Both the position numbers and the translations under genes were made by a program. Positions 5,467-54,192 of a stretch of DNA of 64,000 nt are shown here, piece after piece. Under the pieces are notes generated by a model. The model searched no databases. It was not told the origin of the DNA and worked only from the letters and a program-made list of their open reading frames with translations. This DNA is from Parvibaculum sp. (GTDB taxonomy: Bacteria; Pseudomonadota; Alphaproteobacteria; Parvibaculales; Parvibaculaceae), in assembly GCA_019635965.1 (NCBI GenBank), contig JAHBYK010000001.1, positions 62,001 through 126,000 on the forward strand, in the 5' to 3' direction. Positions within the stretch are counted from its first letter, which is position 1. Each line of letters begins with the position of its first letter.

Positions 5467-5489
5467 TAATAGGTAGAAGATACCTATTA
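5467..5489. promoter_or_regulatory. Perfect 9-5-9 palindrome, probable PadR operator
   Basis: TAATAGGTA-N5-TACCTATTA is a perfect 23-base palindrome in the 266-base divergent gap between the DUF1302 gene and padR. It sits 68 bases before the padR start and 177 bases before the DUF1302 start. Its position and symmetry fit an operator for the dimeric winged-helix PadR protein encoded next to it. That assignment is inference. Confidence 0.6.
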
Positions 5490-5556
5490 GTAAAGGGGAT
5501 ATATCAAGTCGGTACGTCGTTCAAGTACCGTAATCTGCTGTCGGGGAGGGCGCGGA

Positions 5557-48619: not shown

Positions 48620-48709
48620 TGGCGGAAGGGGTGGGATTCGAACCCACGGTGGGCGTGAACCCACGCCGGTTTTCAAGACCGGTGCCTTAAACCACTCGGC
48701 CACCCTTCC
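48620..48709 (-). tRNA. tRNA-Ser (anticodon UGA)
   Basis: A 90-base tRNA read on the minus strand. The 7-base acceptor stem is GGAAGGG / CCCTTCC with discriminator G and an encoded CCA. The D-arm is GGCCGAGTGGTTTAAGGC, the anticodon loop CTTGAAA gives UGA, and there is a long serine-type variable arm (CGTGGG..CCCACG) and a T-arm with GGTTCGAATCC. It lies just upstream of rpiB, 35 bases before its start. Confidence 0.97.
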
Positions 48710-49228: not shown

Positions 49229-49639
49229 TCAACTCGTCGGGCCGGGAAAGGGCGGAACGAACGTCTTCTTGAACCGTTCCTTGCAGGCCACATGCTCTTC
49301 GCTCAGAATCGCATAGCCCTGCTCCTCACAGGACTTGTTGGCCCTGTATTCCGCAACGCCCTTGTTGGTGCAGCCTCGCAGATCGGGCTCCCACAGGAAG
49401 ATGCAGACCATCGGAATATATCGCTCCTGACAGGGCAGTTCGCGAATATATTTCTTCTGCTCTTCCGTGCGCCGGTTCCACCAGGCAAGCGCATCGGCCG
49501 GACGAGTCGGGAAAGTGTCGCTGTTGGTGCAGTCGGGAATGACTTCCGCCCCGGCCTGGGCCGGGGAAGGCCCGGCCGTTGCCGTCATGATCAGCATACC
49601 GACTCCGAGCAGCAGGCATGCCTGAACGAGAAACTTCAT
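49229..49639 (-). CDS. Secreted six-cysteine protein, copy 2 of a tandem pair
   Basis: The 136-residue precursor has a signal peptide (1-29, ending SPAQAGA) and a mature part of about 107 residues with six cysteines (DC, PC, VC, GC, SC, AC) at the same spacing as in the neighbouring copy. The core AWWNRRTEEQKKYIRELPC, IPMVCIFLWEPDLRGC and TNKGVAEYRANKSC is conserved between the two copies, about three quarters identical by eye. I do not recognise the family. Three disulphides are plausible, so the protein is probably periplasmic or extracellular. It starts 18 bases after copy 1 stops. Confidence 0.85.
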   Translation of the reverse strand: MKFLVQACLLLGVGMLIMTATAGPSPAQAGAEVIPDCTNSDTFPTRPADALAWWNRRTEEQKKYIRELPCQERYIPMVCIFLWEPDLRGCTNKGVAEYRANKSCEEQGYAILSEEHVACKERFKKTFVPPFPGPTS

Positions 49640-49657
49640 GTTTCGTGCTCCTTCCGC

Positions 49658-50044
49658 TCAGCCGGGAAAGGGAGGCGTGAAGCTTTTCTTGAAGTCCTGT
49701 TTGCAGGCCTCATGCGCCTCGGTGAGAATCGCATGGCCCTTTGCCGTGCACTCCTTGTCGGCGCGATATTCGGCGACGCCCTTGTTCGTGCAGCCGCGCA
49801 GATCCGGATCCCAGAGGAAGATGCAGACCATGGGAATGAAGCGCTGCTCGCAGGGCAATTCGCTGATGTATTTCTTCTGTTCGGGGGTTCGCCGGTTCCA
49901 CCAGGCGGCAGTTGCCTGCGGATTGCCGGTTTTGTCGCTGTCGATGCATTCGGGGACCGCCTGCGCGTGGGCACGCTCCGCCGCGAAACCCATCCCCAAT
50001 ATGCCAATACCAAGCAGCAGGCACAGTTGAACCAGATACTTCAT
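49658..50044 (-). CDS. Secreted six-cysteine protein, copy 1 of a tandem pair
   Basis: The 128-residue precursor has a signal peptide (1-27, ending AERAHAQA) and a mature domain with six cysteines (EC, PC, VC, GC, EC, AC) aligned with those of the next gene. Both copies end KxFxPPFPG. ATG at 50044 has GGGAGGAG 5 bases upstream; a longer reading to 50128 lacks this. It is the promoter-proximal gene of a two-gene operon with a palindrome over the putative promoter. Function unknown; the paired copies and rich aromatic/basic core suggest a folded binding or inhibitor module, but that is a guess. Confidence 0.85.
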   Translation of the reverse strand: MKYLVQLCLLLGIGILGMGFAAERAHAQAVPECIDSDKTGNPQATAAWWNRRTPEQKKYISELPCEQRFIPMVCIFLWDPDLRGCTNKGVAEYRADKECTAKGHAILTEAHEACKQDFKKSFTPPFPG

Positions 50045-50072: not shown

Positions 50073-50124
50073 AATAGTAATATCCTTTTACTATTCTGGC
50101 AGAATTGTGGCGGTTCGCAAGAGA
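50073..50124 (-). promoter_or_regulatory. Promoter with palindromic operator before the six-cysteine pair
   Basis: On the minus strand, TTGCGA and, 17 bases later, AGAATA form a plausible -35/-10 pair. The -10 side overlaps a perfect palindrome AATAGTAA-N7-TTACTATT (50073-50095), 29 bases before the ATG. The overlap fits repression by a dimeric regulator. The promoter assignment is by eye. Confidence 0.5.
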
Positions 50125-50135
50125 ACAAAAATATT

Positions 50136-50165
50136 CCGGGCGGGCTGCCTGCGGCGCCCGCCCGG
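50136..50165 (-). terminator. Terminator after the glutathione transferase gene
   Basis: A perfect 10-base stem (CCGGGCGGGC / GCCCGCCCGG) with a 10-base loop is followed on the minus strand by AATATTTTTG. It separates the glutathione transferase gene from the six-cysteine operon. Confidence 0.85.
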
Positions 50166-50176
50166 AGATAGTGAGG

Positions 50177-50959: not shown

Positions 50960-52246
50960 ATGAGCGCGGAACGCGCCACGGAGAAAGACGGCCCGGATGA
51001 ACCGGGCCCGGGCGTGTTCTACGGCTGGTATGTCGTGGGTGCTGTTCTCGTCATCATGACGGTGACCGCCGGCCTTGGCTTTTACAACCTGTCCGTCTAT
51101 CTCAAGGCCTTCGTTGCGCAAGGTGGTTTCTCGGTCGCCGCAACGTCCGGCGCGACGGCCTGTTTTTTCATTTCTTCCGGCATTGCGGGCCTCGGCGTTG
51201 CGGCGCTGATCGAGCGGTACGATCCGCGTTGGGTCATTACCGGCGGCGCCATCGTCTGCTCGATTGCGACGCTCGGCGCTGGCTATGTGGCAGAGCTTTG
51301 GCAGCTCTACCTTTTCTACATCCTGTTCGGCGCGGGCTATGCCGGCGCCGCACTCATCCCCGGCACGACACTCGTTGCGCGCTGGTTCGCGCGCCGCCGC
51401 TCTGTCGCGTTGTCCATCGCATCGACCGGACTTTCGCTCGGCGGCATTCTGCTGACGCCGGTCGCCGCGAGCCTCATCGACCGCTGGGGGCTTCAGGCGG
51501 CAACACCCTGGCTCGCGCTCGGTTTCGTGATCGGAATCATTCCCATTGCCTGGCTTCTGATCCGGCCCTCGCCGCAGGCCATCGGCCTTGGCCCCGACGG
51601 TGATCCGATCAAGCGTGACGAAAGCGGTGCCGTTCTGCCCGCGGACGGAATCGACTTTCAGGAAGCGATCCGCAGCCGCTTCTTCATCCTCTCAACATCC
51701 GCCTTCATTTTCGCCATGATGGCGCAGGTCGGCGTGATCGCCCATCAGTTCCGCCTCGTGGCGCTGCGAAGCGGCAACGACGAAACGGCGGCACTCGCTG
51801 TTGCCACCATGGCCTTTGCAAGCATTGCCGGACGGCTCGCGGGCGGGTGGGCGCTGAGCTTCATTCCCTCGCGCCGCTTCGTCTTTGCGCTGGTCGTCGG
51901 ACAGGGGCTTGCCCTGGCCTTCTATTCCTTTGCGGAAACGCCCTTCGCGCTTTTCTGTGCCACCATTCTTTTCGGAGTCACCGTCGGCAACCTGCTGATG
52001 ATGCAGCCGCTGATGCTTGCCGAAGCCTTCGGCCTCAAGGCCTATGGCCGGATCTATTCGCTCAGCCAGCTTTTCATGACGGCGGGCGTTGCGACCGGCC
52101 CCGCCGCCGTTGGGTTCCTCTATGAGTGGCTCAACGGCTATGGCGTCGCCTTTCTCGTCATGGCGGCAGCGTCGCTGCTCGCCTTTCTGTTCATACTTGC
52201 GGGCGGACCTGTCCGCGCCATGATCGAAAGAAAGACACATGCGTAA
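50960..52246 (+). CDS. MFS transporter, monocarboxylate/oxalate-formate-like, copy A
   Basis: The 428-residue permease has about twelve membrane segments, starting GVFYGWYVVGAVLVIMTVTAGLGFYNLSVYLK, with a central loop (about residues 205-225) rich in Asp/Pro. The MFS loop after helix 2 is IERYDPRWV. Similar proteins in this subgroup carry carboxylates. It is clearly paralogous to the gene at 52900. GGGAGG is 5 bases before the ATG. The next gene begins inside its last 8 bases. Confidence 0.88.
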   Translation: MSAERATEKDGPDEPGPGVFYGWYVVGAVLVIMTVTAGLGFYNLSVYLKAFVAQGGFSVAATSGATACFFISSGIAGLGVAALIERYDPRWVITGGAIVCSIATLGAGYVAELWQLYLFYILFGAGYAGAALIPGTTLVARWFARRRSVALSIASTGLSLGGILLTPVAASLIDRWGLQAATPWLALGFVIGIIPIAWLLIRPSPQAIGLGPDGDPIKRDESGAVLPADGIDFQEAIRSRFFILSTSAFIFAMMAQVGVIAHQFRLVALRSGNDETAALAVATMAFASIAGRLAGGWALSFIPSRRFVFALVVGQGLALAFYSFAETPFALFCATILFGVTVGNLLMMQPLMLAEAFGLKAYGRIYSLSQLFMTAGVATGPAAVGFLYEWLNGYGVAFLVMAAASLLAFLFILAGGPVRAMIERKTHA

Positions 52247-52899: not shown

Positions 52900-54192
52900 A
52901 TGGATGCTGGCCCGGCGCCAGAAACGCCGCGCGCTTCGCCGCGCGGACCGGTCTTTTACGGCTGGTACGTCGTTGCCGCCGTCTTCGTCATCCATACCGT
53001 TGCGTGCGGCCTGATCTTCTACAACCTGTCGATCTTTCTGAAGGCCTTTGTGGCTGAGGGCGGATTCACGGTCTCGGCTGCATCGAACGCAACCGCGCTC
53101 TTCTTCGTCTCGTCGGGTATCGCCGGTCTCGCGGTCGGCTGGCTGCTCGACCGTTACGATCCGCGCTGGGTCGTGACGTCCGGTGCGCTGCTTTCCGGCG
53201 CCGTTCTCGCCAGCGCCGGGCATGTCACGGCAATGTGGCAGCTCTATGCCTTCTATATCCTTTTCGGAATCGGCAATGCGGCTGTCGCCGTCATCCCCGG
53301 TATGACGATTGTCGCCCGCTGGTTCACCCGGCAACGCTCAAAAGCCATTGCCTATGCCTCCACAGGCCTGTCGCTGGGCGGCATCGTCTTCACGCCGGTA
53401 TCGGCCGGACTGATCGAACGCTACGGATTGATGGATGCGGCCTACTGGCTGGGTCTTGTCCTTGTTATCGGCGTCATTCCGGTCGCCCTGATCGTTCTTC
53501 GGGCGAGCCCGGAGGCCATTGGACAGGCGCCGGATGGCGATCCGCCGCGCCGCAGCGCGGATGGCACCCTGCTGCCGCCGGATGGTGTCTCTTTCGAACA
53601 AGCAATCCGAAGCCGCTTCTTCATCCTCTGCACCACGGCTTTCGTCTTTTCCATGATGGCGCAGGTGGGTTCGCTGGCGCACCAGTTCCGGCTTGTCTCG
53701 ACGCGCACCGGCGATGACCAGATGGCCGCGCTTGCCGTCGCCGTCATGGCGGCCGCGAGCATCGCCGGCCGGCTTGTCGGCGGCGCCGTGCTTTCGCATG
53801 TCGCCTCCAAGACCTACCTCTACGCAATCTATGTGCTTCAGGCCCTGTCCTTCATCCTGTTCGCCTTTGTGCAGGGCCCTGCGGGCCTGTTCATTGCGTC
53901 GGCCGTCTTCGGATCGACCGTCGGCAACATGCAGATGATGCAGCCGCTCATTGTCGCCGAAGCCTTCGGCCTGAAATCCTATGCGCGCATCCTCTCCGTC
54001 TCGCAGATGATCACGACATGCGCGAATGCCGCGGGCCCCGCCCTGCTCGGCTTCCTCTATGTCGCCGCTGGCGGGTATGAACTTGCCTATCTCGCCATCA
54101 CGGTCTCGTCCGCACTTGGCTTTGCAAGCCTTTATGCGGCAGGGCCCGTGAGGGCTCTGCTCGATGCGCAGGAAAAGACAGTACAGGGCTGA
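52900..54192 (+). CDS. MFS transporter, monocarboxylate/oxalate-formate-like, copy B
   Basis: This 430-residue permease closely parallels the gene at 50960: GPVFYGWYVVAAVFVIHTVACGLIFYNLSIFLKAF at the start, LDRYDPRWVVTSGAL after helix 2, GDPPRRSADGTLLPPDGVSFEQAIRSRFF in the middle loop, and SVFGSTVGNMQMMQPLIVAEAFGL-like residues late on. The order MFS-LbetaH-MFS suggests duplication of the transporter around the carbonic-anhydrase-like gene. Substrates are unknown but probably carboxylates. A malyl-CoA-lyase-like gene follows. Confidence 0.88.
   Translation: MDAGPAPETPRASPRGPVFYGWYVVAAVFVIHTVACGLIFYNLSIFLKAFVAEGGFTVSAASNATALFFVSSGIAGLAVGWLLDRYDPRWVVTSGALLSGAVLASAGHVTAMWQLYAFYILFGIGNAAVAVIPGMTIVARWFTRQRSKAIAYASTGLSLGGIVFTPVSAGLIERYGLMDAAYWLGLVLVIGVIPVALIVLRASPEAIGQAPDGDPPRRSADGTLLPPDGVSFEQAIRSRFFILCTTAFVFSMMAQVGSLAHQFRLVSTRTGDDQMAALAVAVMAAASIAGRLVGGAVLSHVASKTYLYAIYVLQALSFILFAFVQGPAGLFIASAVFGSTVGNMQMMQPLIVAEAFGLKSYARILSVSQMITTCANAAGPALLGFLYVAAGGYELAYLAITVSSALGFASLYAAGPVRALLDAQEKTVQG

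What the first reader, a model, noticed from the sequence alone, without database searches (positions are those of the whole stretch)
49229..50044. Tandem pair of secreted six-cysteine proteins of unknown family
Two adjacent genes encode signal-peptide proteins with a mature domain of about 100 residues and six cysteines at matching positions, about three quarters identical by eye over the last 82 residues. The conserved AWWNRRT..QKKYI..LPC, IPMVCIFLW.PDLRGC and PPFPG blocks fit no family I recognise. The tandem duplication and own promoter suggest selection for dosage or diversification, as in inhibitors, adhesins or stress proteins.
Basis: partly seen in the sequence, partly recalled or inferred. 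Interest (0 to 1): 0.6.

Follow-up and report, generated by a model that had tools for sequence, protein, structure and literature searches.

The report
Co-regulated pair of secreted six-cysteine proteins
Two neighbouring genes make small exported proteins pinned by six cysteines that belong to no described family; they sit behind a DNA switch shared with a MarR-type regulator and envelope transporters, so they probably help these bacteria move or tolerate oily or detergent-like compounds.

Summary
Two minus-strand genes (A 49658-50044, B 49229-49639) encode signal-peptide proteins with six matching mature cysteines, 63 of 82 identical residues at the C-terminus. They match no Pfam, NCBIfam, PHROG, PADLOC or PDB family. 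All six cysteines are invariant in 38 homologues from Parvibaculum and one sister genus; two remote homologues lie in another alphaproteobacterial order. A and B are 18 bp apart and share one promoter. It is present at 29 of 30 homologous loci. Genome scans place it mainly at three other promoters: a MarR regulator diverging from an ExbB-ExbD-ExbD-TonB-like operon (18/18 genomes), a GPH-type transporter, and DUF1329, usually beside an RND pump. Twelve of 12 MarR orthologues found independently of the site carry it. The pair is very likely part of a small MarR-repressed envelope-transport regulon; the proteins are most likely periplasmic accessories handling amphiphilic compounds (inferred). 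The duplication is not under diversifying selection (orthologue dN/dS about 0.02-0.15), and tandem copies were repeatedly lost or fused. New family, new regulon; molecular function unproven.

The parts
49658..50044 (-). gene A, 128 aa, signal peptide + 100-aa mature six-cysteine domain (first gene of the unit)
   Evidence: ORF; homologues at 82-84% identity in the nearest relatives; purifying selection
49229..49639 (-). gene B, 136 aa, paralogue of A (second gene of the unit)
   Evidence: ORF; 63% identical to A; orthologous B copies in G002, G011, G008, G024
49961..50044 (-). signal peptide of A (MKYLVQLCLLLGIGILGMGFAAERAHAQ), cleavage site inferred by eye
   Evidence: sequence; no signal-peptide predictor was available
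49640..49657 (-). 18-bp gap between the stop of A and the start of B: probable single transcription unit
50074..50094 (.). operator palindrome (- strand ATAGTAAAAGGATATTACTAT; consensus TTAGTAA-N7-TTACTAA)
   Evidence: conserved upstream of 29 of 30 homologous loci; same motif at MarR/Exb, GPH and DUF1329 promoters; the only site with 2 or fewer mismatches in the 64-kb window, permuted half-sites average 0.1
50092..50120 (-). inferred promoter: -35 TTGCGA (50115-50120), 17-bp spacer, -10 AGAATA (50092-50097) overlapping the operator
   Evidence: read from sequence and conserved in close relatives; the consensus scan at its threshold did not report it
50127..50166 (-). probable intrinsic terminator of the upstream GST gene, isolating the A-B unit
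   Evidence: GC-rich stem followed by ATTTTTG; an 80-nt stretch holding it folds at -33.2 kcal/mol

Best explanation
A and B are co-transcribed, exported, disulphide-stabilised small helical proteins restricted mainly to Parvibaculaceae. Their promoter is repressed by a MarR-family regulator that binds TTAGTAA-N7-TTACTAA over the -10/start region. The regulator gene (own genome: G000 contig 51) also represses itself and the divergent exbB-exbD-exbD-tonB-like operon and, through the same site, a GPH-type inner-membrane transporter and a DUF1329 periplasmic protein that is usually beside an HAE3-type RND pump. When the regulator meets its ligand, probably an amphiphilic or aromatic compound, the set is induced together. 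The six-cysteine proteins then act in the periplasm as accessory factors of this energised envelope-transport machinery, binding or shielding the substrate or bridging to the TonB-like protein. Shown by sequence: family, cysteines, operator and its targets. Inferred: MarR as the cognate binder (strong), repression (from operator position), amphiphile ligand and accessory role (weak to moderate).
For: Operator upstream of 29/30 homologous loci in two genera. Pattern scan of 18 genomes with at most 1 mismatch: 44 distinct sites, of which 18 (one per genome) lie in the MarR/Exb intergenic region, 9 at the six-cysteine gene, 8 at GPH, 5 at DUF1329, 2 at DUF1302/PadR (one of these assigned only by its identical site sequence) and 2 unassigned; forward hits 39 against 11 for the reversed control. 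MarR orthologues fetched by protein alone carry the site in 12/12 loci across four genera, two of which lack the six-cysteine gene. Base frequencies agree across the four promoter classes. Pfam/NCBIfam: MarR, ExbB, DUF1329, MMPL/HAE3-like, GPH. A DUF1302-DUF1329-HAE3 set (AmeABCD) is up-regulated on monoterpenes, AmeB (DUF1329) is needed for growth on them, and the set is proposed as a monoterpene efflux system in Castellaniella (PMC6394551). Remote order: six-cysteine gene and TonB-like gene are both present in G384 and G092, both absent in G213 and G308, and lie 4.4 kb apart in G092.
Against: No expression or binding data. Sites were found by sequence pattern. In the AT-richer sister genus the site counts do not exceed reversed controls, so there only position argues for them. 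One divergent homologue (G018) and the two loci with a decayed A copy (G025, G005) lack the site. TonB-like and MarR genes exist in genera without the six-cysteine gene, so the machinery does not need it. Substrate and interaction partner are unknown.
Confidence: 0.5

Rival explanations
1. Same regulon, but the proteins are protective: secreted envelope-stress or detergent-tolerance factors that stabilise the outer membrane or chaperone damaged proteins when an amphiphile enters, with no direct part in transport.
For: Co-regulation with efflux-like components (DUF1329, HAE3-type RND) suits a tolerance response; the proteins are small, soluble-looking and roughly charge-balanced.
Against: GPH importer and ExbBD-TonB-like operon in the same regulon suggest transport rather than pure protection.
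Confidence: 0.25
2. Inhibitor, adhesin or interbacterial factor under diversifying selection.
For: Small secreted disulphide-rich proteins often are such; tandem duplication.
Against: dN/dS far below 1; duplicates repeatedly lost or fused; no defence, phage or plasmid match; shared operator with transport genes.
Confidence: 0.08
3. Thiol-based sensor or metal-binding protein: cysteines are kept reduced or bind metal rather than forming structural disulphides.
For: Six invariant cysteines; very weak fold hits to copper-storage proteins (E 6.6-8.7).
Against: Exported, so likely oxidised; no CXXC or histidine-rich metal motif; in G092 cysteine 2 is replaced while an extra cysteine appears near cysteine 1, as expected if 1 and 2 pair.
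Confidence: 0.1

Closest known systems
AmeABCD (DUF1302, DUF1329, AmeC, HAE3 RND pump) of Castellaniella defragrans (PMC6394551)
   Same: DUF1329 and an HAE3-type RND permease share the operator-bearing region of this regulon; proposed to handle hydrophobic compounds
   Different: No six-cysteine protein, ExbBD, GPH transporter or shared palindrome is mentioned in the passages read; the six-cysteine proteins match none of these families in the profile searches made here
MarR-family autoregulated regulons
   Same: Regulator gene divergent from a target operon with a palindrome in between; the same palindrome at remote targets
   Different: Closest named MarR models (Sta1, SlyA, HpaR) score far below cut-off; ligand unknown
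ExbB-ExbD-TonB energy-transducing systems
   Same: The co-regulated operon has ExbB, two ExbD-like ORFs and a TonB-like protein with a proline/glutamate-rich stalk
   Different: The TonB-like protein's C-terminal domain (with conserved cysteines) matched no Pfam TonB C-terminal model

Membership tests
Any described protein family (Pfam, NCBIfam, PHROGs, PADLOC) | Profile match above curated cut-off | tested here: not met
   No match for A or B, nor for 27 family members against Pfam
Any family with a solved structure | Sequence-profile match to a PDB chain | tested here: not met
   0 matches up to E = 10
Known fold | Confident structural match of the predicted model | tested here: inconclusive
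   Helical models, pLDDT 77 and 86; Foldseek best E about 1-2, VIA Z at most 4.9 (2.7 A over 70); shallow alignments, and only one of five models of the second job was confident
MarR regulon as defined here | Operator TTAGTAA-N7-TTACTAA overlapping the promoter | tested here: met
   2 of 14 positions differ at 50074-50094; conserved in 29/30 homologous loci
MarR regulon as defined here | Regulator binds this operator and controls the genes | not testable with these tools
   Inferred from 12/12 linkage of the site to marR orthologues
Lysozyme inhibitor LprI / DUF1311 | Pfam LprI match | tested here: not met
   No Pfam match up to E = 10
Copper storage proteins (Csp) | Four-helix bundle lined with about 13 or more cysteines (recalled, not read here) | tested here: not met
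   Only six cysteines in the mature protein; structural hits at E 6.6-8.7 are noise level
AmeABCD-type system | Being one of the DUF1302, DUF1329, AmeC or HAE3 proteins | tested here: not met
   No profile match for A or B; A/B are only linked to DUF1329 by the shared operator

The most novel reading that the evidence does not exclude
A and B are a new class of periplasmic accessory protein for a non-canonical ExbB-ExbD-TonB-like machine (the TonB-like protein has a cysteine-bearing C-terminal domain instead of a recognised TonB domain), which with a GPH importer and DUF1329/RND parts forms an undescribed MarR-controlled system that moves amphiphiles across the envelope of Parvibaculaceae.
Probability: 0.25. 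Interest if true: 0.65.

Novelty: new variant of a known kind. Interest (0 to 1): 0.45.

Why it matters
A family with no name and no recognised domain acquires a regulatory context: one operator, one likely regulator and a defined set of partner genes that can be tested in a cultured surfactant degrader (Parvibaculum lavamentivorans). How these bacteria get long-chain surfactants and hydrocarbons across their envelope is, to my knowledge, poorly understood; the regulon names candidate parts, including an unusual TonB-like protein.

Tried and rejected
Sequence searches of Pfam, NCBIfam, PHROGs, PADLOC and PDB gave nothing. Plasmid, phage and IMG/VR searches gave no relatives, so it is not a visible mobile-element gene. 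Fold searches of two models gave only noise-level hits (pyridoxal kinase, Rubisco accumulation factor, CSP3). A weak same-genome hit (G000:C25, E 0.02) lies where no matching secreted six-cysteine ORF is seen and was dropped. A phylum-wide draw of 398 genomes with the wider profile found no relatives outside the own genome. A marginal hit in G238 (E 0.0055) was not a matching secreted protein. The sigma-70 consensus scan found no promoter; the promoter given here is read from conservation. Literature searches found no paper linking DUF1329 with a Parvibaculum MarR or naming these proteins.

Full report
OBSERVATION. The interval 49229-50044 holds two ORFs on the minus strand: A (49658-50044, 128 aa) and, 18 bp further downstream, B (49229-49639, 136 aa). 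They are 63% identical over 133 residues and 76.8% over the last 82, with six matching cysteines in the mature part.

FAMILY. Neither protein matches Pfam, NCBIfam, PHROGs, PADLOC or a PDB sequence, and scanning 27 members against Pfam gave only sub-threshold noise. The window lies in a 75%-complete genome of the Parvibaculum group. Homologues occur in 26 of 27 genomes of this genus (the exception is 57% complete) and in 6 of 7 of one sister genus, and were not found in three other genera of the family. Two remote homologues lie in another alphaproteobacterial order: G384 (37% identical to A in the alignment), directly beside a CitE-like lyase whose orthologue lies about 4 kb from the pair in the window, and G092 (33% over 84 residues). 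No relatives appeared in phages, plasmids, viral contigs or a phylum-wide sample.

ANATOMY. In 38 sequences the invariant positions are the six cysteines plus WW, R, L, P, L, A and G. AlphaFold2 gives a helical mature domain (pLDDT 77 for A full length, 86 for mature B, though only one of the five B models was confident) and no convincing fold match. Spacing along the helices suggests pairs C1-C2, C3-C4, C5-C6. In G092 C2 is replaced while a new cysteine appears near C1, which is what a C1-C2 pair would predict; this is inference.

EVOLUTION. Orthologue pairs have dN/dS between about 0.02 and 0.15 (where dS could be computed), and A versus B about 0.22: purifying, not diversifying, selection. 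The tree indicates at least two separate duplications, one giving A/B of the window's relatives and another, deeper one in the G003/G004/G007/G015 group. Two copies are intact in 9 genomes. In G025 and G005 the upstream copy is decayed. G023 and G009 carry one gene that reads A-like at the start and B-like at the end, as left by recombination between tandem copies. The duplication is unstable and not needed by most species. The locus is otherwise fixed: GST upstream and a thioesterase downstream in every locus of both genera that was read.

OPERATOR. Aligning upstream regions revealed a palindrome overlapping the likely -10 region, consensus TTAGTAA-N7-TTACTAA. It is present with at most 4 mismatches in 29 of 30 loci whose first gene is intact (shuffle frequencies of a match as good or better 0 to 0.043). 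In the window it is 50074-50094, the only place in 64 kb with 2 or fewer mismatches. A scan of 12 genomes for the exact core gave, besides the six-cysteine locus, four sites, all upstream of the same GPH-type transporter. Allowing one mismatch in 18 genomes gave 44 distinct sites: 18 in the intergenic region between a MarR gene and the exb operon (one in each genome), 9 at the six-cysteine genes, 8 at GPH, 5 at DUF1329 (beside an HAE3-like RND permease in those read in full), 2 at a DUF1302/PadR region, 2 unassigned. Forward hits were 39 against 11 for the reversed pattern. In the sister genus sites at MarR/Exb and DUF1329 recur in orthologous positions, but overall counts there do not exceed the reversed control, so only position argues for them.

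REGULATOR. Because those sites were found by pattern, an independent test was made: MarR orthologues were fetched by protein search alone. All 12 fetched loci, from four genera, carry the site upstream of marR (1 to 3 mismatches of 14), including two genera without the six-cysteine gene. This is the expected picture of an autoregulated MarR repressor whose regulon gained, or elsewhere lost, the six-cysteine gene. The neighbouring operon encodes ExbB, two ExbD-like ORFs and a TonB-like protein whose C-terminal domain matches no TonB domain in Pfam.

LINK TO THE TONB-LIKE PROTEIN. In the remote order, the two genomes with a six-cysteine gene also have the TonB-like protein and the two without lack it; in G092 the two genes are about 4.4 kb apart, though without ExbB in the stretch read. 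The numbers are small, but they point the same way as the shared operator. The operator itself was not found at those two remote loci.

FUNCTION. DUF1329 and HAE3 proteins belong to a proposed monoterpene efflux system in Castellaniella (PMC6394551), and MarR regulators typically sense small lipophilic or aromatic ligands (general knowledge). The best-supported reading is that A and B are periplasmic accessories of a MarR-controlled, energised envelope-transport response to an amphiphilic compound. Family, operator and targets are shown by sequence; the identity of the binder is a strong inference; the ligand and the molecular act are hypotheses.

VERDICT. Real, lineage-restricted, undescribed secreted family with a newly found regulatory context.

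Noticed in passing
L137:5714-6562 (G000 contig 51) and orthologues: TonB-like protein with proline/glutamate-rich stalk whose C-terminal domain carries four conserved-looking cysteines and matches no Pfam TonB domain; preceded by ExbB and two ExbD-like ORFs. A distant homologue occurs in G092.
   Followed up: partly
window 5487-5507: A weaker copy of the palindrome (TTAGTAAAGGGGATATATCAA, 3 mismatches) between a DUF1302-family gene and a PadR regulator; the orthologous region in G024 (L149) has a site with 2 mismatches. It may be PadR's own site or a further regulon member.
   Followed up: partly
window 50960-52246 and 52900-54192: Two related MFS transporter genes in tandem around a gamma-carbonic-anhydrase-like gene, conserved next to the six-cysteine locus in most Parvibaculum genomes.
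   Followed up: no
window 48620-48709: tRNA-Ser (TGA) gene just downstream of the thioesterase, between it and an RpiB-like gene.
   Followed up: no
L044 (G025) and L045 (G005): Upstream six-cysteine copy decayed (stop codon or frameshift) and the operator is missing there too, so the remaining B copy may have changed regulation.
   Followed up: partly
L043 (G018): The single, most divergent Parvibaculum homologue lacks the operator although the genome keeps it at marR/exbB.
   Followed up: no
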